In this document: piece after piece, positions 47,801 through 61,396 of the stretch
How positions within the stretch are numbered: position 1 is the stretch's first letter
How the letters are laid out: every line of letters begins with the position of its first letter
IMG/VR virus record: IMGVR_UViG_3300050010_000483
Coordinates: 20,592-84,591 of that record
Direction: 5' to 3' (one strand)
From: a virus
DNA: 64,000 nt
Made by a program: the position numbers and the translations under genes
The notes under the pieces: model-generated
Told to the model about the DNA's origin: nothing
Databases searched by the model: none
The model's input: only the letters and a program-made list of their open reading frames with translations

Positions 47801-49596
47801 CAGAAGGTGGATGCCATTCTGAGGGAGTAATTGGTGATAAATGGAATGGAATGGTTTATCAAAATTATGGAGCAGTTCAATACGAGTGTATGGAAAATGG
47901 TGGCGTCTTCAAATACAATTATCGTGAACCAGATAAAGATTCGGAATTGATTCTTTTTGATGTTACTCAAACTGGTAGTACACTTTGGCTTAAAAACATG
48001 GCCTTCTATCCATTTTATCAAGAGCGTTTGGGAAGTGAGTTTACCTCTAACATTCAAATTCCATACTCTCGCGGAAATACAAGTGGATTTTTGTCAACCG
48101 TTTATCAAAACAATTTGTTGAATTTTGATTTATCTTCATTCTTTCCAATGATTCCTGGTATAGGATGGTATGATGAAAATCCCCTTGTTATTGGGCCATT
48201 TGATCGTGACGTATCTTTGTGCGTTGAATATCCAAACAGTGTGGTGGCTAGTTCTGAATTATTTATCAATGGGTGGCAATTAACAAACATGCAATATGGT
48301 CTTGATGAATGTGCCTCTCGTGATTGGCTAAGGCAACCCATATTTGTGGATACAGGGATTATATTGAATGAAAATGGCCGAGGACAATATTTCTCTATTA
48401 TGAGTAAGGTTCTTTCTGGAAATTCATTTAATATCAATGTATTTGCCGAGAAACTTGGTTCGCCAAACGACCCAACTGGTATAGGAATGATGTCTGGTGC
48501 AATTGTATCACTCAAATATTTGCCTTCTCGCTATGGATCATTATATGATGGTAATCTTTTTTCGGGTGAAGAAGGATGGACTGACCCTTATCGTTATGTT
48601 AGCGGCATGATGCCAATTCCGTTAAAGATCAATAACCAAACACTTGAGGGTCTCGCTGGCTCATATTCGACTCCAATTTTTTCCCGCTCAGGACTTTATT
48701 ATCCTTTACCCGACGATTCTGACAATTTTGCAGATTTCACAGGGAATGGTTCGGCAGATAAATATGGAAATATTACTTATCCTCGTGGATTTAACATTCA
48801 AACGTACTGGCAGAATAAAGTGCGGGAATCTCAACAACCAATGACGTTGTCTGGATGGAGAGAGGGTAGTCGCCTTTCGATCATTATTAAGAATGTTAAT
48901 TTAAATTTTGATGTGGTTCCTTACCAGCAGAGGCAAGTAGTTATTCCTTCTGGAACTTGTATCGTTAGCGGACAAATGGGTTACTTGGCCCAAGCTGAAA
49001 GTTCTGTTTTTTCCGAGGGAATTATTGTACAAAATATCACTGCTCCCGATCCTTTAACGGGTCTATACAACCCAATGTTCGTATCTGACGTATTACAGAG
49101 GTTGAGTGGAATTATTAGTGGTATTACTGGTTCTAGCTTGGTTATATCGGCCCCATCAATCGTGGAACAGCGTGCTTTCATTTCTGGAATCTCAGACGAT
49201 GAAACATACGTTGGAGAAATGACACAACCACCACAAAATTACAATAAGTTATTGTGGCCTGCTCTGAGTGATCTGGAATATCTGAACGCTGGAGAAACCA
49301 TCGAACAGTTACCAACTGATGACGGCAATACTTATCTTAATTCAAATTTGATTTTTAGTGCTTCACAGGGCCAATTATTGCCAAATGGAACAAATAATCC
49401 AAACGTAAATAAGACCTATGCTGTTATCAATGAATTTCAAATGTATGATTCTCTTTCAACAGATGCATTATTGAATTCGGGTGTTTGTCTGACCACGAGA
49501 ACTGGGCCAAAAAACATAATTTCTCAAAAGACAATGTCTGGCGCACTGGCCCCCGCAAGTTCATCACTGAACCTGATTAACCAGGGTCTTTTTTAA
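44866..49596 (+). CDS. Very large unrecognised protein, probably virion component
   Basis: 1576 residues, starting three bases after the preceding stop, so the pair is probably co-translated. The N-terminal 250 residues are helical and Ala/Asn-rich (for example INRLTLSIAVYSIIWAYALNTAIQPGDLVP); the remainder is beta-rich with Tyr, Asn, Pro and Gly. It also has scattered Cys (CADs such as 'GDELPRR' region have none). No catalytic motif is visible. Convergent with the polymerase gene on the other strand, whose stop it overlaps by four bases. Same options as for the neighbour: fibre, appendage or injected protein. Confidence 0.55.
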   Translation: MGNLMEIFGMASVASYLRGLTSSLETSRIQGMVDGITVGFGMPSTDGDTLFFYYQSSPDLPSTAGFDNVSWFALYQQDVENIINKFLPNEAEINRLTLSIAVYSIIWAYALNTAIQPGDLVPIIGSTLVSVAQLANNNAPFKTVKNGNTTTIIQPFSAEIIASLTNKDYAASLAQVAASAKTSQTQLANYNWFDVSSFFAKPDLQVMKDIESQYYYISGVLNYMAPQEIPPDCIGDQIILQTYTGETNTTFIRNTPCKQVSSYVGPLEQLTFNRTFSDGPCSSGDFTLAVKSGYFDFDQSILPPKDYLSNAINLYSFYQDTNGNYIPLCTSPTFIDANGRYDILSELSASPGTLSCVDVPQRMHVGDELPRRQGKYNSHGKCIGWTLVNVTGFKYVSFEIPSTGFNQNLSYYKLNPVPAISGVLQRALNLNPNPYVATQMGDFYFPFTLDIYENQHWYVGPPQLNGTNTLPSFAFYQHFDSTNFNDNMKIVMFPCLSSSDGTTAGDTSRTFSISTMMAASGSNDAHFPYKNPYGTATFYTGISSNLAGADTIAKQCFGMGDAFEGQYTITSYPAWNSNFSYTGYAATSSNGQVVDLLDVAQEYNGFILGSPVQYMQYINGYSGAEGVSSISQLVALDGSGNFVNYYYLDERLYSNVILDAGIWNYFAPVPSHMDGNSTRLFYTQQVENYLPRYSSGPFASYMESFLYPNANQTARKYGIKSNGFPVSITFDVEIREEAIKEIYGTFTILPNGNISTYPTFVTPIRSVSTNGKNINPVTNQGTGIPLMYTIFQSSDIYQVSNYDFTTWAIGSDFEYTAKLPVVDINWSPNTYNYDNVLNPPLGYNNNTYTSDMNGNLVGNLFKNGVLQTGNGGQAHTIITGPGQMVKTVYDENPTAVALYHGFHSWEQAGTITYVPPIYNLASGDLFVSPQLLNAFPEMQTFLGYIAVDFNNHLYNLTTGTDPIFNQYVGGRVGGPNQEAEGGCHSEGVIGDKWNGMVYQNYGAVQYECMENGGVFKYNYREPDKDSELILFDVTQTGSTLWLKNMAFYPFYQERLGSEFTSNIQIPYSRGNTSGFLSTVYQNNLLNFDLSSFFPMIPGIGWYDENPLVIGPFDRDVSLCVEYPNSVVASSELFINGWQLTNMQYGLDECASRDWLRQPIFVDTGIILNENGRGQYFSIMSKVLSGNSFNINVFAEKLGSPNDPTGIGMMSGAIVSLKYLPSRYGSLYDGNLFSGEEGWTDPYRYVSGMMPIPLKINNQTLEGLAGSYSTPIFSRSGLYYPLPDDSDNFADFTGNGSADKYGNITYPRGFNIQTYWQNKVRESQQPMTLSGWREGSRLSIIIKNVNLNFDVVPYQQRQVVIPSGTCIVSGQMGYLAQAESSVFSEGIIVQNITAPDPLTGLYNPMFVSDVLQRLSGIISGITGSSLVISAPSIVEQRAFISGISDDETYVGEMTQPPQNYNKLLWPALSDLEYLNAGETIEQLPTDDGNTYLNSNLIFSASQGQLLPNGTNNPNVNKTYAVINEFQMYDSLSTDALLNSGVCLTTRTGPKNIISQKTMSGALAPASSSLNLINQGLF

Positions 49597-52211
49597 AGTT
49601 TTAATTCTCCCGTGTCTCCTTTGAGATCAGAGAGTTTAGTGTAGATTTGATTCTGTTGAATGGCAATTTCATTGGCGAAAATAGTATCCTTGCCCATTTT
49701 CTTACCCTTGACGATCACAATGTCTTCTTCCGAAGGCATCTTACCATTCGTATCTTTACACTTATCAAGGGAATCACTAAAGATCATAACTTTGATCGAG
49801 CCCGTTTCATCACTAATGACCATCTTTGAGTACTTGTTTTTATTCTTTGACAGGCCACTCTTTGGTTCTTCCTCAATAAAACCAATGAAGTCACAATAAC
49901 GTCCTTCTTCCAAATCTAAAACTTGCGTCACAGGAATCAGTGAAGATTTCTTATCCATGAAAATTTCGCGCAACGTTGTGTAAATCGCATATCCCAATAA
50001 GCGTTTTTCATACCACCAGTTGGCAAAACTTTCGCAAATCTTATTCTGCTGATAGATCAACTTGTATTTTGCCGAGTTTTTTTTGATCGTTTCAAAACGA
50101 GAATCCTTGATGAAAGACTTGCCCTTTTCATCTTTTATTGTGGTATTCAGGGCTTTGATTAAAGTTGGTAAGTAAAAATTATATTCCTTACCAAGCTCAA
50201 GAGATTTTTGTTTTTCCCTTGGCTTTAATAAATTCCACAGTTGCGCCTCATATACCAAATGAGTTCTGGTTTTACCAAAACCATCCAATGTACCAGCCTG
50301 AATCAAGGCAGATAGTACTCCAATGTCCAAACCAGCCTCTTTTGAGGATTCAAAAAGCTCAAATTTGTTGGCATGTTCGCGTTTGAAGTCATTGAGTTTT
50401 TCTATCGTCTTTCCAGCAATACCCTTGATTGAAGAGAGACCAAAACGAATATCTGAGCCTTCGACAGAAAAATCCATATTTGATTTAGCCAAACTTGGTG
50501 GTAACAAACAAATACCAATATGGATCATTTCCTTGTGAATCTTGGCAATTTCACTAATTGGGTCGGGTTCATGTTGTGACATCTTCAATAAGGAAAGATA
50601 GAATTCAGTTGGGTAGTTGAATTTTAAGTAAACGGTAATTGCGGTTAAAGCAGCGTAGCTATACGAATGTGATTTATTGAATTGATACCCAGAGCTGTCA
50701 TTTAAGATTTTCCAAAAAACATCTCCAATTTTTGAATCCAGTTTATTTTCATCAATTTTATGTTTAATTTTATCTTCCCAGAGTTTTATTTCGTCTATTT
50801 TTTTCTTAGAAATGCATCTTCTAATTTGCTCAGATTCGTCCAAAGAAAAACCTATTTTATTTGCCATCTGCATCGCCTGTTCCTGATATAAACACAAACT
50901 TCCCGTTTCTTTCAAAATATCATCAAAAAATGGATGTACTTTTTCGTAATCTTGCCCATTCGTAAAGCCCGCATATCTATCTATGAATTGACTTGCTCCA
51001 GGTCTTGCCAAAGCCAAAATGGCACTTAATTCATTAAAATTGTGGGGCTGTACTTTTTGAGTTGTTTTGAATCCCAAATCAGCTTCAATTTGAAATAGCC
51101 CATGTGGATATTTAAGATTTTGTAGATTTTCGTAAATAGAAGGATGATTTAAATCAATATCTTCTACCTGAATTTTTAACATTTTGCAAATATCATCAAC
51201 GACAGACACACCACGCAAACCTAAAGCGTCCAACTTAACAGTGAATAGGGAAACCCAGTTCATATCATAGCCAGAAACAATGTCCTTATCTGATGAAAGT
51301 TCAGTCGGACAACATTCGTCCAATTCGTCATGAGAGATTAAAATACCAGATGGATGAACCCCTTTGTTCTTGATAAGGTCTTTGATCTTTAGCACATTCG
51401 TGTAAACACGCGGATTGGCATTGCACCATTCTTTCAATTCTGTAACGGGCGCAACCTTCCATTTGTCAGAATCTTTCTCTTTAACGCCATTTATGGCATC
51501 TTCCAATTCGACAACGATACCGTGCAGCTTGGGAATCATCCCTGTCACACGAGTCATTTCTTCCTCGGGTTTCATGCCCACGATTTTACCGACTTCCTTG
51601 ATAACAAGCTTGGAAGAAAGCGTATTAAACGTGAGAATCTTGGATGTCTTTCCCTTAAACTTTTCTTCGAGGTATTTCAAAACCTTCGGGCGATTGTAAT
51701 AGCAAATATCCAAATCAACGTCGCACATTAGAGAACCATCAAGATAGGTGATTCCGTCAACCACTTTCTTTTTGGCGCGAGTTTTTGAAATGAAACGCTC
51801 GAAATAAAGACCATACTTGATTGGGTCAATTTTAGTCACACCAATCAAATAGAGAACCAAACTTCCAGCCGCCGAACCACGCCCAAGCCCCGTTGGGATT
51901 TTATTCTCTTTACAATAATTGATTACATCCCATACCAAAAGGATGTAGTCAACGAACCCAAGTTCCTGCATGATACCCAATTCAGTTTTAACACGTTCAG
52001 CATATGCATCGTAATTCTTTTCTCCCTTCTGGAAATTTAAAGTTTTGAACCCTTGTAAGCAAAGGCCATGCAAAAAATCATAATTGGATGTAGTACGGTC
52101 AAGCTTTAGCGTGTCTTTGTATTTGTCTTCGATGACAAACGTGGGTAATCTTACTCCATTAATTTTAATAACTAAGGAATCAAACTGTTTTAAAAAGTCA
52201 TCTGCATTCAT
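49593..52211 (-). CDS. dnaE: DNA polymerase III alpha, catalytic and C-terminal part
   Basis: 872 residues. The fragment begins after the PHP domain, in the thumb region. Palm motifs are complete: GRGSAAGS at 110-117, MCDVDLDI with D164 and D166 (equivalent to E. coli D401 and D403) and VKLDALGLR with D328 (equivalent to D555). A 'GVHPSGILIS' segment and the finger/tower region follow. An OB-fold lies at about residues 780-840 (CDFIGFIEEEPK... ...MVISDETGSIKVMIF). It adds nucleotides to the primer end during phage replication. The missing PHP part is the separate gene at 53307-54077; two other genes lie between. Together the pieces give 1128 residues, close to a usual DnaE. Confidence 0.93.
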   Translation of the reverse strand: MNADDFLKQFDSLVIKINGVRLPTFVIEDKYKDTLKLDRTTSNYDFLHGLCLQGFKTLNFQKGEKNYDAYAERVKTELGIMQELGFVDYILLVWDVINYCKENKIPTGLGRGSAAGSLVLYLIGVTKIDPIKYGLYFERFISKTRAKKKVVDGITYLDGSLMCDVDLDICYYNRPKVLKYLEEKFKGKTSKILTFNTLSSKLVIKEVGKIVGMKPEEEMTRVTGMIPKLHGIVVELEDAINGVKEKDSDKWKVAPVTELKEWCNANPRVYTNVLKIKDLIKNKGVHPSGILISHDELDECCPTELSSDKDIVSGYDMNWVSLFTVKLDALGLRGVSVVDDICKMLKIQVEDIDLNHPSIYENLQNLKYPHGLFQIEADLGFKTTQKVQPHNFNELSAILALARPGASQFIDRYAGFTNGQDYEKVHPFFDDILKETGSLCLYQEQAMQMANKIGFSLDESEQIRRCISKKKIDEIKLWEDKIKHKIDENKLDSKIGDVFWKILNDSSGYQFNKSHSYSYAALTAITVYLKFNYPTEFYLSLLKMSQHEPDPISEIAKIHKEMIHIGICLLPPSLAKSNMDFSVEGSDIRFGLSSIKGIAGKTIEKLNDFKREHANKFELFESSKEAGLDIGVLSALIQAGTLDGFGKTRTHLVYEAQLWNLLKPREKQKSLELGKEYNFYLPTLIKALNTTIKDEKGKSFIKDSRFETIKKNSAKYKLIYQQNKICESFANWWYEKRLLGYAIYTTLREIFMDKKSSLIPVTQVLDLEEGRYCDFIGFIEEEPKSGLSKNKNKYSKMVISDETGSIKVMIFSDSLDKCKDTNGKMPSEEDIVIVKGKKMGKDTIFANEIAIQQNQIYTKLSDLKGDTGELKL

Positions 52212-53306: not shown

Positions 53307-54077
53307 TCAAAAATTTTTCCACTTGTCAAAATTAAACTGATTACTTCCCATATGGTCGAGATTTGGGTTTTCCAATGTTGCCCTCTTGGTGCCACCCTTC
53401 TGGCTGATACAACGAAAAGTAATGTACGCCTCGAAGTCTTCGGGATGATAGTAATAGATAGACTGAGCAGGAATTACTTCATATTTATCCAAACAGAACT
53501 TTTTAACTTGAGCTTGCAAGCCTTCATCAAATGGAAGATTATTATCTTCAACTAAGAAAGTTGGCTTTGTAAACTCCAAATCTGGGACATGCAAGTGAGA
53601 CTCATACGAGTTAGAGTACAAAAAAGAATCATAAAATGGAACTACCAACTTGAGATTATCATTCCAGAATTTTTTCAAAGTTTTAAAATCAATGCAAGGA
53701 GAGTAATAAAACCCGTCTCGTGCAGCAACAGACCATATTTTCATTAAAGCTTTGTAACCCTCTGTGTTTTTGGCGAAAACGATATATTTTGCCCGACGGT
53801 TCAAAGATGGGTCATCCTTGATTGTCATGTCATCATTAACATCAAATCTTATACCAAATATCAATTTTATTTTGTTTTCATCAGCGACTTTACTGGCTTG
53901 CAAAAGGCCAGAAATATTATCATCCACCAAAACTAAAGTATCGAGGTTATGAGTTTTGAGAATGTCAAAAATTGAAATCGGATATGAATCTTTCTTACCC
54001 GTGGGTTTTTCAAGTGTTAAAATTGATTTGCCTAAACTGTAATGGCTTTTAAAGCATCCAAGAACTTTGTGATCCAT
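53307..54077 (-). CDS. DNA polymerase III alpha N-terminal (PHP) part, separate gene
   Basis: 256 residues that match the N-terminal domain of DnaE: the 'LVDDNISGLLQASKVADENKIKLIFGIRF' segment, 'YIVFAKNTEGYKALMKIWSVAARDGFYYSPCIDFKTLKKFW' and the end 'YYHPEDFEAYITFRCIS'. The metal-binding residues of active PHP domains are not kept: the usual 'H-x-H' near the start reads GCFKSHYS with Leu and Lys at the His positions, and the 'TDHG' motif reads VDDN. It therefore probably has structural use only. An unusual σ70-like promoter lies before it (54085-54113), with the ATG about at +1. Two genes separate it from the catalytic part at 49593-52211. Confidence 0.85.
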   Translation of the reverse strand: MDHKVLGCFKSHYSLGKSILTLEKPTGKKDSYPISIFDILKTHNLDTLVLVDDNISGLLQASKVADENKIKLIFGIRFDVNDDMTIKDDPSLNRRAKYIVFAKNTEGYKALMKIWSVAARDGFYYSPCIDFKTLKKFWNDNLKLVVPFYDSFLYSNSYESHLHVPDLEFTKPTFLVEDNNLPFDEGLQAQVKKFCLDKYEVIPAQSIYYYHPEDFEAYITFRCISQKGGTKRATLENPNLDHMGSNQFNFDKWKNF

Positions 54078-55167: not shown

Positions 55168-56048
55168 AAATTTATTTGTTCAGAGTTCATAACTCCGAAG
55201 TCTTTCTGATCTGGTATGGCTATCGTAATTTGATCTTCATCAAAATAAGACATGAGTTTCTTTTTTGCATCTACCGCCGCTTCATTGCCGACAAATTCAT
55301 TATCTTCATCGTTATTAAAAGCAACCACAATATGTTTGATATTAATTCGTAACAAAAATTCGATGATCTTTTTACTGACTTCTATGCCAAATGTTACCAG
55401 AACATTTTTAATTCCATTTTCCCAAAGGGAAAGCATGTCTCCAATACTTTCAACAAGAATGACTTCTTTATATTCTGTGATAATATCGGCATTTAACTTC
55501 AAAGGATACAACCAATTAGACTTTGCGCCGCAGTGTTTCCACTTGGGAAATTCAGGCTTGTCGTTTAACATGCGACCACTAAATCCAATCAAATCTTGAT
55601 TTTCGTCATAGATGGGAAATACATAACGATAAGCCATCTTACCATTAAATATGGTTCCTCCTTCAAATAATTCAATAATGTGTTTGGAAATCTTTCGATT
55701 TTCCCAATACTCATGATTCTTCTGTAGCTTAAACAAAAGATTTTTGTCAAATTTTTTTACTTGTGTCAATTCATATTTATGATCGGCATGACTTTGTAAT
55801 TCGGGTAATGTACCCAAAACAGTAGAAGCTTCTGCTAGGGTATGTAAATTCAACGTTAATTGAATCAGTTTTTGAATGGAACCCCCCATTCTAGCACTAA
55901 AATCATACCATTGGCCTGTAAGTTTATTTACGGCCAAAGATGTGTTATTATCTGATGAACGATATAACGGAGCCATTCTCCATTGTTTACCAAAATCTCG
56001 TAAATCAGAATAACCTATTTTAAGTAAGATGTCTCTTACCTCAGTCAT
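55137..56048 (-). CDS. DnaG-type primase with TOPRIM domain
   Basis: 303 residues, ATG overlapping the helicase stop as ATGA. Residues about 1-80 resemble a CHC2 zinc-finger module ('GKQWRMAPLYRSSDNNTSLAVNKLTGQWYDFSARMGGSIQKLIQ') but without the Cys/His ligands. The middle contains 'YRYVFPIYDENQDLIGFSGRML', typical of the catalytic core start. TOPRIM follows: E200 in 'VILVESIGDMLSLWENG' and D247/D249 in 'AFNNDEDNE'. It would make RNA primers at the fork together with the DnaB helicase encoded directly upstream. The short length (no C-terminal helicase-binding domain) fits phage versions. Confidence 0.8.
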   Translation of the reverse strand: MTEVRDILLKIGYSDLRDFGKQWRMAPLYRSSDNNTSLAVNKLTGQWYDFSARMGGSIQKLIQLTLNLHTLAEASTVLGTLPELQSHADHKYELTQVKKFDKNLLFKLQKNHEYWENRKISKHIIELFEGGTIFNGKMAYRYVFPIYDENQDLIGFSGRMLNDKPEFPKWKHCGAKSNWLYPLKLNADIITEYKEVILVESIGDMLSLWENGIKNVLVTFGIEVSKKIIEFLLRINIKHIVVAFNNDEDNEFVGNEAAVDAKKKLMSYFDEDQITIAIPDQKDFGVMNSEQINLWKQQHNLKN

Positions 56049-58384
56049 ATCGTATCATTTTCTGTGGTTGTTGTTTCGTCTCGAACCAAAAACGTAGAAT
56101 TTGACCAACTAATCGTATCCCTTAGGGTTCCGCGCTCTTCCACTTCAAAATTCTCAATATTGATATTGATGAAATTTTTTACCCATTTCTTTTTGCCGTC
56201 AGGAAATCGTCGAAGAATACGATTGTTATAACCTGTAGCCTCTCGCCCTTGTTCACGAATAACAATTTCAATAAGTTTATGACTACCACTATGTGGAGTA
56301 TCCAAGGCTACCTCGTCAGGAGTACGTTGGCGAAAAATCCAAACGCCAGAAGCAAAATGAGTGATACGGTCAGAAAGACCAATTGAACGTTCGTCATCTT
56401 GCATCTCTGCACTGGCGCGGTCTCCAACAACACCCTCACGATTGTTTTGACATGCAGTTAAAAACGGAGAATCAAGTTCCTCGGATAGTTTTTTGATAAA
56501 GTCAACTTTATCCCCCATTTCTTGATATTCTCGGCGAGATTTTTCATCATTACCTATGATCTTAATATAATCGTAGATAAATAAACAGTCTTTGCCACGG
56601 CCAACATACTTGTAGTACCAGCGGCGGCAGATCGCTGCAATTTCTTCAATTGGTTTATTTCCAACGGCCATGTGATAAACCTGATTATAATCCTGATCAA
56701 GAGCTTTACCTATTGAACGGACTTTTTGAACATATTCGTTATTTTTGCGCCAGTTACCTGTTTTAAGGTGCCAGAGACCGACCTGAGTCTTGGCCGCACC
56801 AGAACGGTATTTGACTTCATAACGAGACATTTCTGTGTCAAGAATGAGAACTGGAATTTTTTGCGTTTTACTAATTTCCATGCCTAATGCTGCAAGAAAA
56901 GTACTATTATGAGTTGGTATCATGGCCTTCCCGCAAAGAAATATATGAGATTTATGTTCGACCTCAATACAAACAGTATTTCCTCTTCCAAAGGGTCGGG
57001 CCTTAATATGACGATTTGGAAATTTTTCTTTACAAGAAGGTAAACAGGCCCCTTTATAATGAAAATTAATTCTATATTTCCATACAAAAGCTTTACCGTA
57101 TAACTTTGCGGGATTCTTTCTTAAGTAGGCTTTAATCCCAAGAGAATGAATCAATTCTAATATTTGTTGAGATAATTGTAGATTTTTATTGCAAAATTCT
57201 ACTCTTCCCGTCTTAGGGTCTATACAATCATTACTATCTATCAAACCTTGTAGTAATTTTCTTCTTTGCTCGATAGATGCTCGGAGATAAATACTGGGAA
57301 TATGTTTATTGCTGATTAAATCAAATTTACAGAGAAAGGTAAGATAATCCGCATGACTTCTCGCAAATGTTCCATTTCCCAACCAAATACCTAAAATATA
57401 TGGGTCAATAGGAAGATTTTGTTTTGGTAAGACAAGAGCCATGGATAATGGCAGTGATGGAGTTTGGGGTCGGATATTACGACTTTGGGTAATGTTATAC
57501 TGATACAATGATTTTGTATCCATTATTTCCCACGGATAATCTACTCTTTTACGGATTGGCCATTCATGGGCTTCATCACAAATGATATGCTGTTTATCAC
57601 AGGTTGTGACTTTGTATAATTGTCTATTTTTCCAATAAGCTTTATTAGTTACTTTGGTAATTTGTCCATCTAAAGTAAAAACCTCATCACCAATATTTAA
57701 ATCTTTTATTTTAACAAAACCTTTAGGCGTCGGAATAGGAGTATTCTCTTCTAAAGCTTTCCCAGCCTTGGCGCGAGCAGCAAAAATATACAAGTTCTTC
57801 CTTCTAAAGCCACCGTACAAACGATTGAATTCAGGAAATGGCGTTGGAATACCAATTTCTTCCATGGGATTGTTACCGCGTTCCTCAACTTCATCATAGA
57901 ACCCATCGAATAATCTTTCTGGTTCATTATTTATGTCAAACGAATTAATTTTCTGCCCGTAGAGAGCGTCAATTTCACCAATAGTAGCGTCCAACTCATT
58001 ATTAACGTTTTTATTGATGGTATCCTTCATAATATCCAAAGTAACCTCTAGGTCTCTCAGGACTCGGAATTTTACCAACTCGCTGGCGGCGCGGATAGTT
58101 GCTTGTGGAGTGACTGGGGTAAAAGAAATTGACTTGATATAATCAAAAATATCAATATCATCCTTGAACGAGATTCCAAGGTTTTTGATTTTTTGAGCAA
58201 GAAGTACTCTGTCAATCTTTTCGTTATTAACGAAAGCCTGGCGAATACATGAATAAATTACGCTGTGGGGTTTTGCAACGAAATCATTTTCGCCGACAAA
58301 TCTATCCACATCTGCGATTACCTCTGGATTGTTAATCAGACCGCTTAATACGTGTTTTTCGATTTGCAATGAAAATAAAGCCAT
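56045..58384 (-). CDS. dnaB: Replicative DnaB-type helicase with intein
   Basis: 779 residues from ATG 58384; an in-frame TTG at 58399 is an alternative start (784 residues). Numbers here use the longer form. The N-domain (about 6-120: 'QIEKHVLSGLINNPEVIADVDRFV') is the usual DnaB N-terminal fold. The ATPase core has 'GFRRKNLYIFAARAKAGK|ST', where the P-loop is interrupted by an intein (A215-N498), and afterwards 'VPVLILDTEMSR', the Walker B region 'DCLFIYDYIKII', 'LTACQN' and 'GLSDRITHFASGVWIFRQR'. After splicing the helicase has about 495-500 residues, as expected. Overlaps the primase start as ATGA. It unwinds DNA at the fork and should load primase. Confidence 0.9.
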   Translation of the reverse strand: MALFSLQIEKHVLSGLINNPEVIADVDRFVGENDFVAKPHSVIYSCIRQAFVNNEKIDRVLLAQKIKNLGISFKDDIDIFDYIKSISFTPVTPQATIRAASELVKFRVLRDLEVTLDIMKDTINKNVNNELDATIGEIDALYGQKINSFDINNEPERLFDGFYDEVEERGNNPMEEIGIPTPFPEFNRLYGGFRRKNLYIFAARAKAGKALEENTPIPTPKGFVKIKDLNIGDEVFTLDGQITKVTNKAYWKNRQLYKVTTCDKQHIICDEAHEWPIRKRVDYPWEIMDTKSLYQYNITQSRNIRPQTPSLPLSMALVLPKQNLPIDPYILGIWLGNGTFARSHADYLTFLCKFDLISNKHIPSIYLRASIEQRRKLLQGLIDSNDCIDPKTGRVEFCNKNLQLSQQILELIHSLGIKAYLRKNPAKLYGKAFVWKYRINFHYKGACLPSCKEKFPNRHIKARPFGRGNTVCIEVEHKSHIFLCGKAMIPTHNSTFLAALGMEISKTQKIPVLILDTEMSRYEVKYRSGAAKTQVGLWHLKTGNWRKNNEYVQKVRSIGKALDQDYNQVYHMAVGNKPIEEIAAICRRWYYKYVGRGKDCLFIYDYIKIIGNDEKSRREYQEMGDKVDFIKKLSEELDSPFLTACQNNREGVVGDRASAEMQDDERSIGLSDRITHFASGVWIFRQRTPDEVALDTPHSGSHKLIEIVIREQGREATGYNNRILRRFPDGKKKWVKNFININIENFEVEERGTLRDTISWSNSTFLVRDETTTTENDTI
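56906..57757 (-). other. Intein in DnaB P-loop, class 3 type
   Basis: 284 residues between GK and ST of the P-loop, from Ala215 to Asn498, with Ser499 as +1. The first residue is Ala, not Cys or Ser. Block B reads 'HIICDEAHEW' (W280), block F has 'TVCIEVEHK' (C477) and block G ends 'MIPTHN' (T496), the Trp/Cys/Thr set of class 3 inteins, which use the block F Cys as first nucleophile. A LAGLIDADG-type endonuclease lies inside, with motifs 'LGIWLGNG' and 'LLQGLIDSND', each with Asn at the expected catalytic Asp. Confidence 0.85.
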
Positions 58385-58414
58385 GCAATATCTTAGCAAA
58401 AACTTTGGTTTTTG

Positions 58415-58711
58415 TCAAGAGACTTCAGAATTTTCTTCATCACCATCGTCGCAGTTCATACCTCTAGCCTCAAGATAATCTTCCCTTGCCCCTTCAATGT
58501 ATAGGTCTTGAAGTGCTGCCGCTGAGTCAGTCATGTACTTTTGCATGGCCAATGCATGAATATTTGTATCAAAAAACATAGTCTGTCTTGGCATACCGTT
58601 CTCGTCAAAATAAAACACAACAAACCCACCCACACAATGCTCTTGCAGTTGGTGAATAAGTTCCTTGGTGATAATATTTTTAGATGTACCCTTCGGTTTA
58701 GATGTTCCCAT
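58415..58711 (-). CDS. Small unrecognised protein
   Basis: 98 residues with a basic N-terminus (GTSKPKGTSKN), a central 'GGFVVFYFDENGMPRQTMFFDTNIHALAMQKYM' segment and an acidic end (CDDGDEENSEVS). A GTGTAAT element ends seven bases before the ATG and AGGAT lies between. It sits between a nuclease gene and the helicase gene. Not recognised; a regulator or helicase-associated factor is possible. Confidence 0.5.
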   Translation of the reverse strand: MGTSKPKGTSKNIITKELIHQLQEHCVGGFVVFYFDENGMPRQTMFFDTNIHALAMQKYMTDSAAALQDLYIEGAREDYLEARGMNCDDGDEENSEVS

Positions 58712-58718
58712 ATCCTAG

Positions 58719-58725
58719 ATTACAC
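58719..58725 (-). promoter_or_regulatory. GTGTAAT element on the minus strand
   Basis: Read on the minus strand from 58725 to 58719; it ends seven bases before the ATG at 58711, the same distance as at 2881-2887. Confidence 0.4.
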
Positions 58726-58727
58726 AT

Positions 58728-59141
58728 TCATAGGGATATTTGAAATTTCTCTTTGATAAATTCTGGCGAAAGTTTGTCAATTTCATCAAAATTTACTTCA
58801 ATTAATTTAAAATTATTTTTTTCAAGCCATTCCGTCTTTTGAACATCGCGCTTGATCGAAGCTAAATATTGAATCGGCTCATGGTTATGAAAGTAGTGTA
58901 ATTGAGAATGTTGAGGGCCATTTACTTCGACGGCAATTCTATACGTTGCATTTAGCAAATCCACTTTCATTAATGAACCATAAACGGGAAATTCCTCATA
59001 GCAAATACATCCCAACCAATATGGTTTGAAAAACTGCTTTGTTCGGAACTGAATCTTGGATTTACACTCGCCCTCCCAATCAATACGAAACCTGGCCACA
59101 TTTTTATGAACTAAACGGCCCTTGATGTTATAAAGTCTCAT
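58728..59141 (-). CDS. Small DUF559/Vsr-like PD-(D/E)XK nuclease candidate
   Basis: 137 residues. The second half reads 'SLMKVDLLNATYRIAVEVNGPQHSQLHYF', then 'SIKRDVQKTEWLEKNNFKLIEVNFDEID', matching the DUF559/Vsr-like layout 'xDfxxxxxxxxiEvDGxxH...RDxxRdxxLxxxGyxvxRf', with Asn in place of Asp in the EVxG motif. Such proteins nick or cut DNA, for example at junctions or mismatches. Its ATG overlaps the RecA stop (TAATG), so expression is coupled with recombination. Substrate unknown. Confidence 0.6.
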   Translation of the reverse strand: MRLYNIKGRLVHKNVARFRIDWEGECKSKIQFRTKQFFKPYWLGCICYEEFPVYGSLMKVDLLNATYRIAVEVNGPQHSQLHYFHNHEPIQYLASIKRDVQKTEWLEKNNFKLIEVNFDEIDKLSPEFIKEKFQISL

Positions 59142-61396
59142 TAGGCATGTAGTGCCTTGATGCGGTCCAGGACAACTTTCAATACTTTGGGATTAGCCTC
59201 GAAATAATCAGAAAACTGTTCGAGCCCCTGATGCTTGGATTTTAGCTCAAGACGGGGTGATAAAGGTAGTTCGGCACCATCTTTATTTTTTTTATTCTTT
59301 TCTTTGATGATTTCATTTTCTGCATCAATTGATTTGTTGGCTTCATCAATCCATTTCTGAACAATGTCAGAAATATCAATCCATGCACCTTTTTTGGTTA
59401 CAAGGTCGTACATGAATAAAGCATCAAATAGTTCCTTCTCAACCCAAACAGCATTACCAATGCGTCCCTTTTTGATTGGAATTTCAAGTCTGTATCCCGT
59501 TTCATCAGAAGATGATTTACGAAGGTCAATCTTGGCGTTTACGCCCAAAATTTTATTCTTAATAGGGTCTGGTTTCTCCTTTTCATTTTCGAGGATATAG
59601 TGGCTGGCAGCACGTGGCTGATAATACAAAGCATATGCAGCCTGGTGATTGAGTGCGTGAGTTTGATTACCTTCCATCAAATTGGGGACATCCTTGGCAT
59701 ATCTGTCGAGTTTGAATGTCGCAGAATATTGTGTGATCATAATCAAAAACCCATTGTATGCTGTAATCAGATGACACAAATGACGAAAGAGTTCCTTCGT
59801 AAGATAATTGACACCAGCAGGCCTCTTGTCATCAGACACCTTTGCATCGAACGACGACTTCAAACGAAGCATGTCAACACTATCAATGATGACGCATAAG
59901 TGGCCGCCAGCCTCATGAATTTGTTTGAATTGGCCGACAAGAATGTCACAAATAGTATCAAAACAGTTTGAGTCAAGAATAAACACAGAACCATAATCCC
60001 AATTATTTGGGTCTTTGGTAAAGGACATTCCTGTTCTGCCTTGAATTTCCTCGCCGAATTTTGCCTCGGCATTAACGTAGAACGTCTTTGATTTTGGCAT
60101 GGTGTCCATGAAGTTTTTTGCGAACAACATGGACTGGGATGTATTGTGGGTTAGATTAAATCCATCAGTTACATACAAACTATCGAAGGAATCTATTTTA
60201 ATGCAAACACATTCATCCTCACCAAATGGTTGAATATCTTCAATTGTTTTCTCTAATTCAGTAGTTCTTAGAACACAGCTATCCAGTTTTCGTTTTAACT
60301 TAAAGGGTTTAAAATCAGAAAAACTAATTATAATCCGATAACTTTTTCTACCATTTAATTTCACACCATTATAATGATAGGAAGGAATTCTGTCGGTGGC
60401 TGTTACTCTTGCCCCTAAACTTCTAGCTAAGAAAATAACATCTTCTGAAAGTTGTTTTGAAGAGGTGGAATATTCTAAACTGGTATTTTTGGAGACCCCG
60501 TTCCCTGTATCCATTAGTCCCATAAGAAGATTTTTTCTATCTTCAATGCTTGAAAATAGATATTCTTTTGGAATATGCTTTTCCCAACAGTATTTATTAT
60601 TAAGATTAAAACTAGAAAGAATATCTCTTATATTTGGAAAAATAAAATAGTAACCAAACAAATAATTTAGTTCTAATTGCAGAATAAAAAGGGAGTCTTT
60701 CAAGAATGATGACATTATATCTAATATATCAAGATTAGACGCAATAAATCCAACGCAATTTTGACCGTGAATGGATTTTATAAATGAGCCATCGCCAAGA
60801 AGTGCCCCAAAAACATATGGGTGTATTGGAAGGGGACGTGGCATTTTACGGAATTCGATTGGCTTGACATAGGGAATGGTATGATTATAATGATTACCAA
60901 CCATGAGAGTTTTTTTAAGTTGATGGGTGGTTTTTACACAGCCATTTCTTCCACAATTCCTGTCGGAATATTCTCTTGTCAACCAAAGATGCTCGTCACA
61001 GCAAATAACTTCGGTCTGATCTGAAAAAATTACTTTATTTACTTTTAATTTTCCCTGTGGATAAACTCCCAAAATTTGATGAGCTTTTCCATCGGACCCA
61101 ATTACTAATTGACCTTGTTTTAAGTCTCCCATCCTTTTCCAACCAGTTGGAGTCAACACTTTAGAATTGACTGACTCGGCCTTTCCGACCTCTGCGGGGC
61201 CGCCAATACGAATGACCGACCCAGTTTTAATCTTGACGTAACTATCAAGTTTTAGAGAGCCAGATGAGATCAAGGTTGGGTGTGAAACTACTGAATTAAA
61301 ATGAGTAGATTCTGTTTCCTTAAGCTGGGACACCAATAGATTCTTGGAGATGTCGTCCATCGTCTTTTCGCTTGGAGAGTTTGTTTGTTTGGCCAT
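59141..61396 (-). CDS. RecA/UvsX-like recombinase with intein
   Basis: 751 residues; the intein (A73-N418) divides the Walker A motif 'GGPAEVGK|TSQS'. After splicing about 405 residues remain. Walker B is 'GGHLCVIIDSVDML' (about residues 500-515), followed by 'KELFRHLCHLITAYNGFLIMITQYSATF', the L2-like region. The C-terminus is charged (NEIIKEKNKKNKDG), as in UvsX-type proteins. It would form filaments on ssDNA for strand exchange and recombination-dependent replication, with the annealing-like and ssDNA-binding-like proteins elsewhere in the window as possible partners. The start region overlaps the upstream gene by 77 bases. Confidence 0.85.
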   Translation of the reverse strand: MAKQTNSPSEKTMDDISKNLLVSQLKETESTHFNSVVSHPTLISSGSLKLDSYVKIKTGSVIRIGGPAEVGKAESVNSKVLTPTGWKRMGDLKQGQLVIGSDGKAHQILGVYPQGKLKVNKVIFSDQTEVICCDEHLWLTREYSDRNCGRNGCVKTTHQLKKTLMVGNHYNHTIPYVKPIEFRKMPRPLPIHPYVFGALLGDGSFIKSIHGQNCVGFIASNLDILDIMSSFLKDSLFILQLELNYLFGYYFIFPNIRDILSSFNLNNKYCWEKHIPKEYLFSSIEDRKNLLMGLMDTGNGVSKNTSLEYSTSSKQLSEDVIFLARSLGARVTATDRIPSYHYNGVKLNGRKSYRIIISFSDFKPFKLKRKLDSCVLRTTELEKTIEDIQPFGEDECVCIKIDSFDSLYVTDGFNLTHNTSQSMLFAKNFMDTMPKSKTFYVNAEAKFGEEIQGRTGMSFTKDPNNWDYGSVFILDSNCFDTICDILVGQFKQIHEAGGHLCVIIDSVDMLRLKSSFDAKVSDDKRPAGVNYLTKELFRHLCHLITAYNGFLIMITQYSATFKLDRYAKDVPNLMEGNQTHALNHQAAYALYYQPRAASHYILENEKEKPDPIKNKILGVNAKIDLRKSSSDETGYRLEIPIKKGRIGNAVWVEKELFDALFMYDLVTKKGAWIDISDIVQKWIDEANKSIDAENEIIKEKNKKNKDGAELPLSPRLELKSKHQGLEQFSDYFEANPKVLKVVLDRIKALHA
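60143..61180 (-). other. Intein in RecA P-loop, class 3 type
   Basis: 346 residues from Ala73 to Asn418, with Thr419 as +1. The start 'AESVNSKVLTPTGWKRMGDL' is typical intein block A, but with Ala as residue 1. Block B has 'VICCDEHLW' (W138), block F 'VCIKIDSF' (C398) and block G 'FNLTHN' (T416), the Trp/Cys/Thr set of class 3. The LAGLIDADG endonuclease has an intact first motif 'FGALLGDG' but the second reads 'LMGLMDTGNG', lacking the catalytic Asp at the usual place. Confidence 0.85.

What the first reader, a model, noticed from the sequence alone, without database searches (positions are those of the whole stretch)
56906..61180. Two class 3-type inteins, both in P-loops of replication ATPases
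Seen: two inteins, 284 and 346 residues, break the Walker A motif after GK in the DnaB-type helicase (before ST) and in the RecA-like protein (before TS). Both start with Ala and both carry Trp in block B, Cys in block F, and Thr before the final His-Asn. Known: class 3 inteins have lost the first nucleophile and use the block F Cys with a Trp-Cys-Thr triad; they are fewer than class 1. Inference: two in one operon, at equivalent sites in two ATPases, may mean transfer between genes or shared ancestry with a common homing site type. While unspliced, both ATPases should be dead, so splicing could gate replication and recombination together.
Basis: partly seen in the sequence, partly recalled or inferred. 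Interest (0 to 1): 0.75.

Follow-up and report, generated by a model that had tools for sequence, protein, structure and literature searches.

The report
Two class 3 inteins in phage ATPases
A phage carries two self-splicing protein inserts (inteins) of a known kind, at the same ATP-binding spot of its replication helicase and its RecA-like recombinase; they came from two separate intein lineages, have lost key residues for spreading themselves, and are otherwise ordinary members of a family that is very common in viral ATPases.

Summary
The inteins (284 and 346 aa; window 56906-57757 and 60143-61180, minus strand) sit exactly between Lys and Ser/Thr of the P-loops of a DnaB helicase and a UvsX/RecA-like protein. 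Both have Ala1, His64, Trp66, a block F Cys (C263; C326) and C-terminal Thr-His-Asn, aligned with solved class 3 inteins (6rix, 6bs8), and group with them. So the class 3 reading is supported.

The inference of one event or a joint switch is not supported. The two inteins lie in opposite halves of the class 3 tree (sisterhood rejected, p-AU 3e-39). Syntenic relatives carry one without the other: virus G001 has the DnaB intein but an empty RecA site; contig G002 has the reverse. Class 3 inteins after the P-loop Lys are commonplace (128 of 153 sampled relatives), and cultured phages EL and FishSpeaker hold several each. New detail: catalytic Asp residues of the homing endonucleases are lost (both motifs in DnaB, one in RecA) while the splicing residues are intact, which suggests non-homing inteins. 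The same virus has two further inteins outside the window (TerL P-loop, PhoH Walker B). Ordinary: new members of a known kind.

The parts
56045..58399 (-). DnaB-type replicative helicase precursor, 784 aa from the TTG listed; the likelier start is the ATG five codons on (58384), matching MPLQSLQIEK of the sister virus
56906..57757 (-). DnaB class 3 intein (I1), 284 aa, Ala1 ... THN|Ser+1
57224..57412 (-). Remnant of the LAGLIDADG homing endonuclease inside I1 (span of the two motifs): LGNG and IDSND, catalytic Asp replaced by Asn in both (residues 128 and 176); the endonuclease region is 47 residues shorter than in L008
59141..61396 (-). UvsX/RecA-like recombinase precursor, 751 aa
60143..61180 (-). 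RecA class 3 intein (I2), 346 aa, Ala1 ... THN|Thr+1
60497..60820 (-). LAGLIDADG endonuclease region of I2 (span of the two motifs): first motif LGDG intact, second motif DTDG changed to DTGN (catalytic Asp226 to Gly)
58728..59141 (-). Vsr/DUF559-like nuclease ORF between the two intein genes; present at the same place in G001 and G002 whatever the intein content, so not linked to the inteins
58415..58711 (-). Small ORF of unknown function (98 aa) between the nuclease ORF and dnaB; a similarly placed small ORF exists in G001 and G002

Best explanation
Both inserts are class 3 inteins. Cys at F:4 (C263 or C326), held by the His64-Cys-Thr triad, attacks the peptide bond before Ala1; the N-extein then passes to Ser+1 or Thr+1, Asn cyclises, and a complete P-loop (GKST or GKTS) results. 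They arrived independently, by homing of two different class 3 lineages that both target the conserved K|S/T junction of P-loop genes. I1 belongs to a DnaB lineage nested among terminase inteins; I2 to the 'AQPL..LTP.GW' lineage found in helicases, AAA proteins and recombinases. Their endonucleases have since decayed: both catalytic Asp and 47 residues lost in I1, one Asp lost in I2. They are therefore most likely vertically inherited, splicing-competent remnants, kept because exact loss from an essential P-loop is rare. Shown: sequences, signature residues, tree position, Asp losses, empty sites in relatives. Inferred: splicing activity, loss of cutting, order of events.
For: Signature residues aligned to solved class 3 inteins. 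Block tree: I1 and I2 inside the clade holding 6rix and 6bs8, with gp41-1, PI-SceI, Ssp DnaB, Spl DnaX and the virus's own PhoH intein outside. Full-length trees: I1+L008+L132 100/100; I1 and I2 on opposite sides of a 99/94 branch; I1+I2 held as sisters p-AU 2.7e-39; I1+L008+L132+I2 p-AU 2e-7. Relatives: H, W, C in 153 of 153, T in 151, intein directly after Lys in 128. Reciprocal presence: G001 DnaB with intein, RecA, TerL and PhoH without; G002 RecA with, DnaB without. Decay: both catalytic Asp kept in 138 of 153 relatives but N/N in I1 and D/G in I2; 15 I1-only against 6 L008-only changes plus 47 deleted residues in the endonuclease, 8 against 9 in the splicing domain.
Against: Splicing and cutting were not measured. 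Single-Asp variants such as I2 might still nick DNA, so the I2 endonuclease may not be wholly dead. The relatives were found with motif patterns (HLW for the I2 side, PYILGIW and the second LAGLIDADG motif for the I1 side), so counts of those features are biased upward. The position of I2 within its half of the tree is poorly resolved. The excess of endonuclease changes in I1 is modest apart from the deletion. The TerL intein, a long branch, falls weakly inside the class 3 side of the block tree, so that tree alone does not establish class 3 monophyly.
Confidence: 0.9

Rival explanations
1. One intein copied itself from one gene to the other inside this virus lineage (dnaB to recA or the reverse).
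For: Same class, same P-loop position, same gene cluster. Copying between ATPase genes probably happens in the family: two helicases of Shewanella phage FishSpeaker carry inteins 64% identical.
Against: I1 and I2 are 23% identical, lie in opposite halves of the tree, and sisterhood is rejected (p-AU 2.7e-39). Each is closer to inteins of other viruses (58% L008; about 40% L055).
Confidence: 0.02
2. The two inteins form a co-selected switch that holds replication and recombination inactive until splicing conditions are right.
For: P-loop insertion should inactivate the precursors. The class 3 P-loop intein of M. smegmatis DnaB is a redox-sensitive switch (PMC6195587), and splicing of the P. horikoshii RadA intein is controlled by its extein (PMC5790916 abstract). 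Both endonucleases look decayed, so homing alone may not explain retention.
Against: Syntenic relatives keep only one of the two inteins. The Cys48 partner of the M. smegmatis switch is Leu in I1 and Val in I2 (alignment). Simple vertical inheritance also explains retention.
Confidence: 0.05
3. They are class 1 (or class 2) inteins that merely resemble class 3, as native gp41-1 does in block sequence.
For: In sequence I2 is closest in the PDB to gp41-1 (6riz/6qaz), a class 1 intein.
Against: Native gp41-1 lacks Trp at B:12 and Cys at F:4 (6riz is the engineered C1A, F65W, D107C form) and falls outside the class 3 clade. I1 and I2 have no nucleophile at residue 1. Class 2 inteins are KlbA orthologues with Asp at F:4 and Cys+1 (PMC4031507); neither holds here.
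Confidence: 0.02

Closest known systems
M. smegmatis DnaBi1 (PDB 6bs8) and M. chimaera DnaB-1 (6rix) class 3 inteins
   Same: Class 3 WCT signature and the HINT fold (TMt 0.81-0.87 to I1); for DnaBi1 also DnaB P-loop insertion before Ser+1 (PMC6195587)
   Different: The mycobacterial ones are mini-inteins without an endonuclease; DnaBi1 has the redox partner Cys48, absent in I1 and I2. I1 keeps an endonuclease remnant.
Terminase class 3 inteins of mycobacteriophages and IMG/VR viruses (TerL1-a type K|T site, PMC5050341)
   Same: Same Lys|Ser/Thr P-loop junction; I1's DnaB lineage is nested among class 3 terminase inteins
   Different: Host gene is terminase; most relatives keep both LAGLIDADG catalytic Asp.
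Intein of sister virus IMGVR_UViG_3300029953_000012 DnaB (L008)
   Same: Orthologous site, 58% identical intein (68% over shared columns), same class 3 residues, syntenic gene cluster
   Different: Endonuclease motifs intact (LGDG, LIDSDG) and 47 residues longer; its RecA, TerL and PhoH have no intein.
Pseudomonas phage EL and Shewanella phage FishSpeaker
   Same: Several class 3-type inteins in one phage (EL four, FishSpeaker three), several of them at GK|T of ATPases
   Different: Host genes are SF2/SNF2 helicases, an ORF annotated as RNA polymerase beta subunit (EL) and a probable terminase, rather than DnaB plus RecA.
gp41-1 split intein (PDB 6qaz)
   Same: Closest solved sequence to I2 after the engineered form; same fold
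   Different: Class 1 mechanism; Phe at B:12 and Asp at F:4; outside the class 3 clade.

Membership tests
Class 3 intein | No Cys, Ser or Thr at intein residue 1 | tested here: met
   Ala1 in both
Class 3 intein | Trp at block B:12 (two residues after the block B His) | tested here: met
   W66 in both, aligned with the Trp of 6rix and 6bs8
Class 3 intein | Cys at block F:4 | tested here: met
   C263 (I1) and C326 (I2), same column as the catalytic Cys of 6rix and 6bs8
Class 3 intein | Thr at block G:5, then His-Asn, and Ser/Thr/Cys at +1 | tested here: met
   THN|S and THN|T
Class 3 intein | Groups with known class 3 inteins, apart from class 1 | tested here: met
   Block tree with 6rix and 6bs8 inside; gp41-1, PI-SceI, Ssp DnaB, Spl DnaX and PhoH intein outside; only the long-branched TerL intein is uncertain
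Class 3 intein | Splicing through a block F branched thioester | not testable with these tools
   Needs protein chemistry
LAGLIDADG homing endonuclease (active) | Catalytic Asp in both LAGLIDADG motifs | tested here: not met
   I1 N128 and N176; I2 D130 but G226; relatives L008 and L023 have both
Class 1 intein | Cys or Ser at residue 1 as first nucleophile | tested here: not met
   Ala1
Class 2 intein (KlbA) | KlbA orthologue, Asp at F:4, Cys+1 | tested here: not met
   Hosts are DnaB and UvsX-like proteins; Cys at F:4; Ser+1 or Thr+1
Redox-switch class 3 intein (Msm DnaBi1 type) | Cys48 that forms a disulfide with the catalytic Cys | tested here: not met
   Leu in I1 and Val in I2 at that column (alignment; PMC6195587 for the switch)

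The most novel reading that the evidence does not exclude
Two independently acquired class 3 P-loop inteins, both with disabled homing endonucleases, have been kept side by side because their splicing times the activation of helicase and recombinase during infection: mobile elements turned into a paired post-translational switch.
Probability: 0.04. Interest if true: 0.65.

Novelty: new member of a known kind. Interest (0 to 1): 0.27.

Why it matters
It adds a clean natural series for intein decay: the same DnaB intein with intact endonuclease motifs in a sister virus and with both catalytic Asp replaced in this one, next to a RecA intein present or absent in syntenic relatives. The survey also shows how strongly class 3 inteins concentrate at the Lys|Ser/Thr junction of viral P-loop ATPases of many kinds, in at least two deep lineages. 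The paired-switch idea is not supported, so the find itself is ordinary.

Tried and rejected
Recent transfer between dnaB and recA: rejected by AU test. A joint switch conserved in relatives: rejected by reciprocal presence and absence. Redox switch of the DnaBi1 type: partner Cys absent. The nuclease ORF between the two genes as a homing partner of either intein: unlikely, it is also present where the RecA intein (G001) or the DnaB intein (G002) is absent. Lactococcus phage 949 ORF58 as a RecA orthologue carrying the same intein: its extein is only weakly similar (23% over 158 aa, E 0.003) and its intein lies on a long branch away from I2. Single-protein searches of viral contigs with the RecA C-extein found nothing and with the DnaB C-extein only the sister virus. 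Looking for the window's loci in two records with an identical TerL intein (L212, L213) found only the TerL intein. The Tori and Perler 2011 paper on class 3 inteins is not in the library.

Full report
OBSERVATION. The window is bases 20592-84591 of an 84,591-base virus record. On the minus strand a DnaB-type helicase ORF (56045-58399) and a UvsX/RecA-like ORF (59141-61396) each carry one in-frame insert. The first is 284 aa (56906-57757), between RAKAGK and STFLAALG; the second is 346 aa (60143-61180), between GPAEVGK and TSQSMLFA. Both start with Ala and end THN. The genes are co-directional with overlapping stop and start codons after each; two small ORFs, a Vsr/DUF559-like nuclease and a 98-aa protein, lie between them.

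CLASS. Solved class 3 inteins are the best solved-structure matches by sequence for the DnaB intein (6rix E 1.4e-13, 6bs8 E 5e-12). For the RecA intein the engineered and native gp41-1 come first and 6rix and 6bs8 next. The defining triad falls in the right columns: His64, Trp66, Cys263, Thr282 in the DnaB intein and His64, Trp66, Cys326, Thr344 in the RecA intein. The definition used is from PMC3196547 and PMC7891396: no nucleophile at residue 1, Trp B:12, Cys F:4, Thr G:5. A tree of splicing blocks puts both inside the clade with 6rix and 6bs8, and leaves class 1 gp41-1, PI-SceI, Ssp DnaB, Spl DnaX and the virus's own PhoH intein outside. One caveat: the virus's Ser1 TerL intein, a very long branch, falls weakly inside. 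Models of both inteins are confident (pLDDT 93.8 and 93.5). The DnaB model's splicing domain matches 6bs8 best by TM-score over the target (0.87). Both models match PI-SceI-like inteins over splicing domain plus endonuclease. The splicing mechanism itself is inferred, not shown.

HOW COMMON. Profile scans of viral contigs returned 80 loci each for the two families, out of 163 and at least 577 confirmed candidates. Among 153 distinct inteins, His, Trp and Cys are present in all, Thr in 151, Ala1 in 120, and in 128 the intein directly follows a Lys (112 a Gly-Lys), mostly the P-loop of helicases, terminases, AAA proteins or recombinases, judged from the flanking residues. The scans used motif patterns, so frequencies of those motifs are biased. 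The K|T site is called a 'classic' P-loop insertion in the literature (PMC5050341), 1701 class 3 inteins were counted in nr by 2020 (PMC7891396), and M. smegmatis DnaB carries a class 3 intein in its P-loop (PMC6195587). Several such inteins in one phage is also not new: Pseudomonas phage EL has four of this family and Shewanella phage FishSpeaker three.

ORIGIN. The two inteins are not a copied pair. In a tree of 42 full-length inteins the DnaB intein joins the DnaB-type inteins L008 and L132 (100/100), with terminase inteins next, while the RecA intein sits in the other half, across a branch with 99/94 support (wider tree). Holding the two as sisters is rejected (p-AU 2.7e-39), also with L008 and L132 included (2e-7). 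Gene-to-gene movement does seem to occur in the family: FishSpeaker's two helicase inteins are 64% identical, and the DnaB lineage is nested among terminase inteins.

RELATIVES. The sister virus G001 (IMGVR_UViG_3300029953_000012) has the same gene order: sugar epimerase, RecA-like, DUF559-like, small ORF, DnaB, primase, nuclease. Its DnaB (about 67% identical in the exteins) has the intein, but its RecA-like protein (GPPSTGKSSEG), TerL (GRGCGKSYIA) and PhoH have none. Contig G002 shows the reverse: RecA-like with intein, DnaB without. The inteins thus come and go independently, which argues against a conserved joint gate. The Cys48 that makes M. smegmatis DnaBi1 a redox switch (PMC6195587) is Leu in the DnaB intein and Val in the RecA intein (alignment).

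DECAY. Most relatives keep both catalytic Asp of the LAGLIDADG endonuclease (138 of 153). The DnaB intein has Asn in both motifs and lacks 47 residues present in L008; the RecA intein keeps the first Asp but has Gly for the second. With L132 as reference, the DnaB intein has 15 private changes against 6 for L008 in the endonuclease, but 8 against 9 in the splicing domain. The splicing residues are intact. This fits the known homing cycle (invasion, fixation, endonuclease decay; general knowledge) with splicing still under selection because the P-loop needs it. Loss of cutting is inferred.

MECHANISM. The block F Cys attacks the bond before Ala1, the N-extein moves to Ser+1 or Thr+1, Asn cyclises, and GK-ST or GK-TS is restored (mechanism from PMC4031507 and PMC5222942). 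Unspliced precursors should lack ATPase activity. Retention is best explained by the rarity of precise loss from an essential motif.

VERDICT. Observation confirmed, class assignment supported, single-origin and joint-switch inferences not supported. New members of a known kind.

Noticed in passing
G000:C1:6766-9894 (L002 6766-9894), outside the window: The large terminase of the same virus carries a 420-aa intein in its P-loop (GRGVSK|S...SHN|TW) with Ser1, Ile at B:12, Cys at F:4, Ser at G:5 and intact LAGLIDADG motifs: a third P-loop intein, not class 3 by signature. Two other IMG/VR records (L212, L213) encode the intein with 100% identity.
   Followed up: partly
G000:C1:807-2612 (L001), outside the window: A PhoH-like protein carries a class 1 intein (Cys1 ... 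VHN|C) next to its Walker B (IADE|CQN); the sister virus PhoH has no intein.
   Followed up: partly
window 49593-52211 and 53307-54077: DNA polymerase III alpha is split into two ORFs (872 and 256 aa) with an exonuclease and a YopX-like ORF between them; the sister virus also has a separate 262-aa N-terminal ORF.
   Followed up: partly
L085, L100 (Cys1); L024/L130, L106, L131 (Ser1): Inteins inside the class 3 side that hold the full Trp-Cys-Thr signature and also a Cys or Ser at residue 1, so with two possible first nucleophiles; useful for asking how class 3 arose from class 1.
   Followed up: partly
L218 and L221 (Shewanella phage FishSpeaker): Two different helicase-type genes of one cultured phage carry P-loop inteins 64% identical to each other, a likely gene-to-gene copy.
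   Followed up: partly
L214 (Pseudomonas phage EL, AJ697969 44708-47818): A class 3-type intein after AGK and before S in a protein annotated as RNA polymerase beta subunit (NC_007623) or as helicase (AJ697969): a GK|S site that may not be a P-loop.
   Followed up: no
L245 (Lactococcus phage 949 ORF58): P-loop intein with Ala1, Cys at F:4 and THN but no Trp at B:12 (Ile), on a long branch near the base of the class 3 side.
   Followed up: no
L033 11834-12673: A free-standing LAGLIDADG-type endonuclease ORF follows the exonuclease gene in the sister virus; none is seen at that place in the window virus.
   Followed up: no
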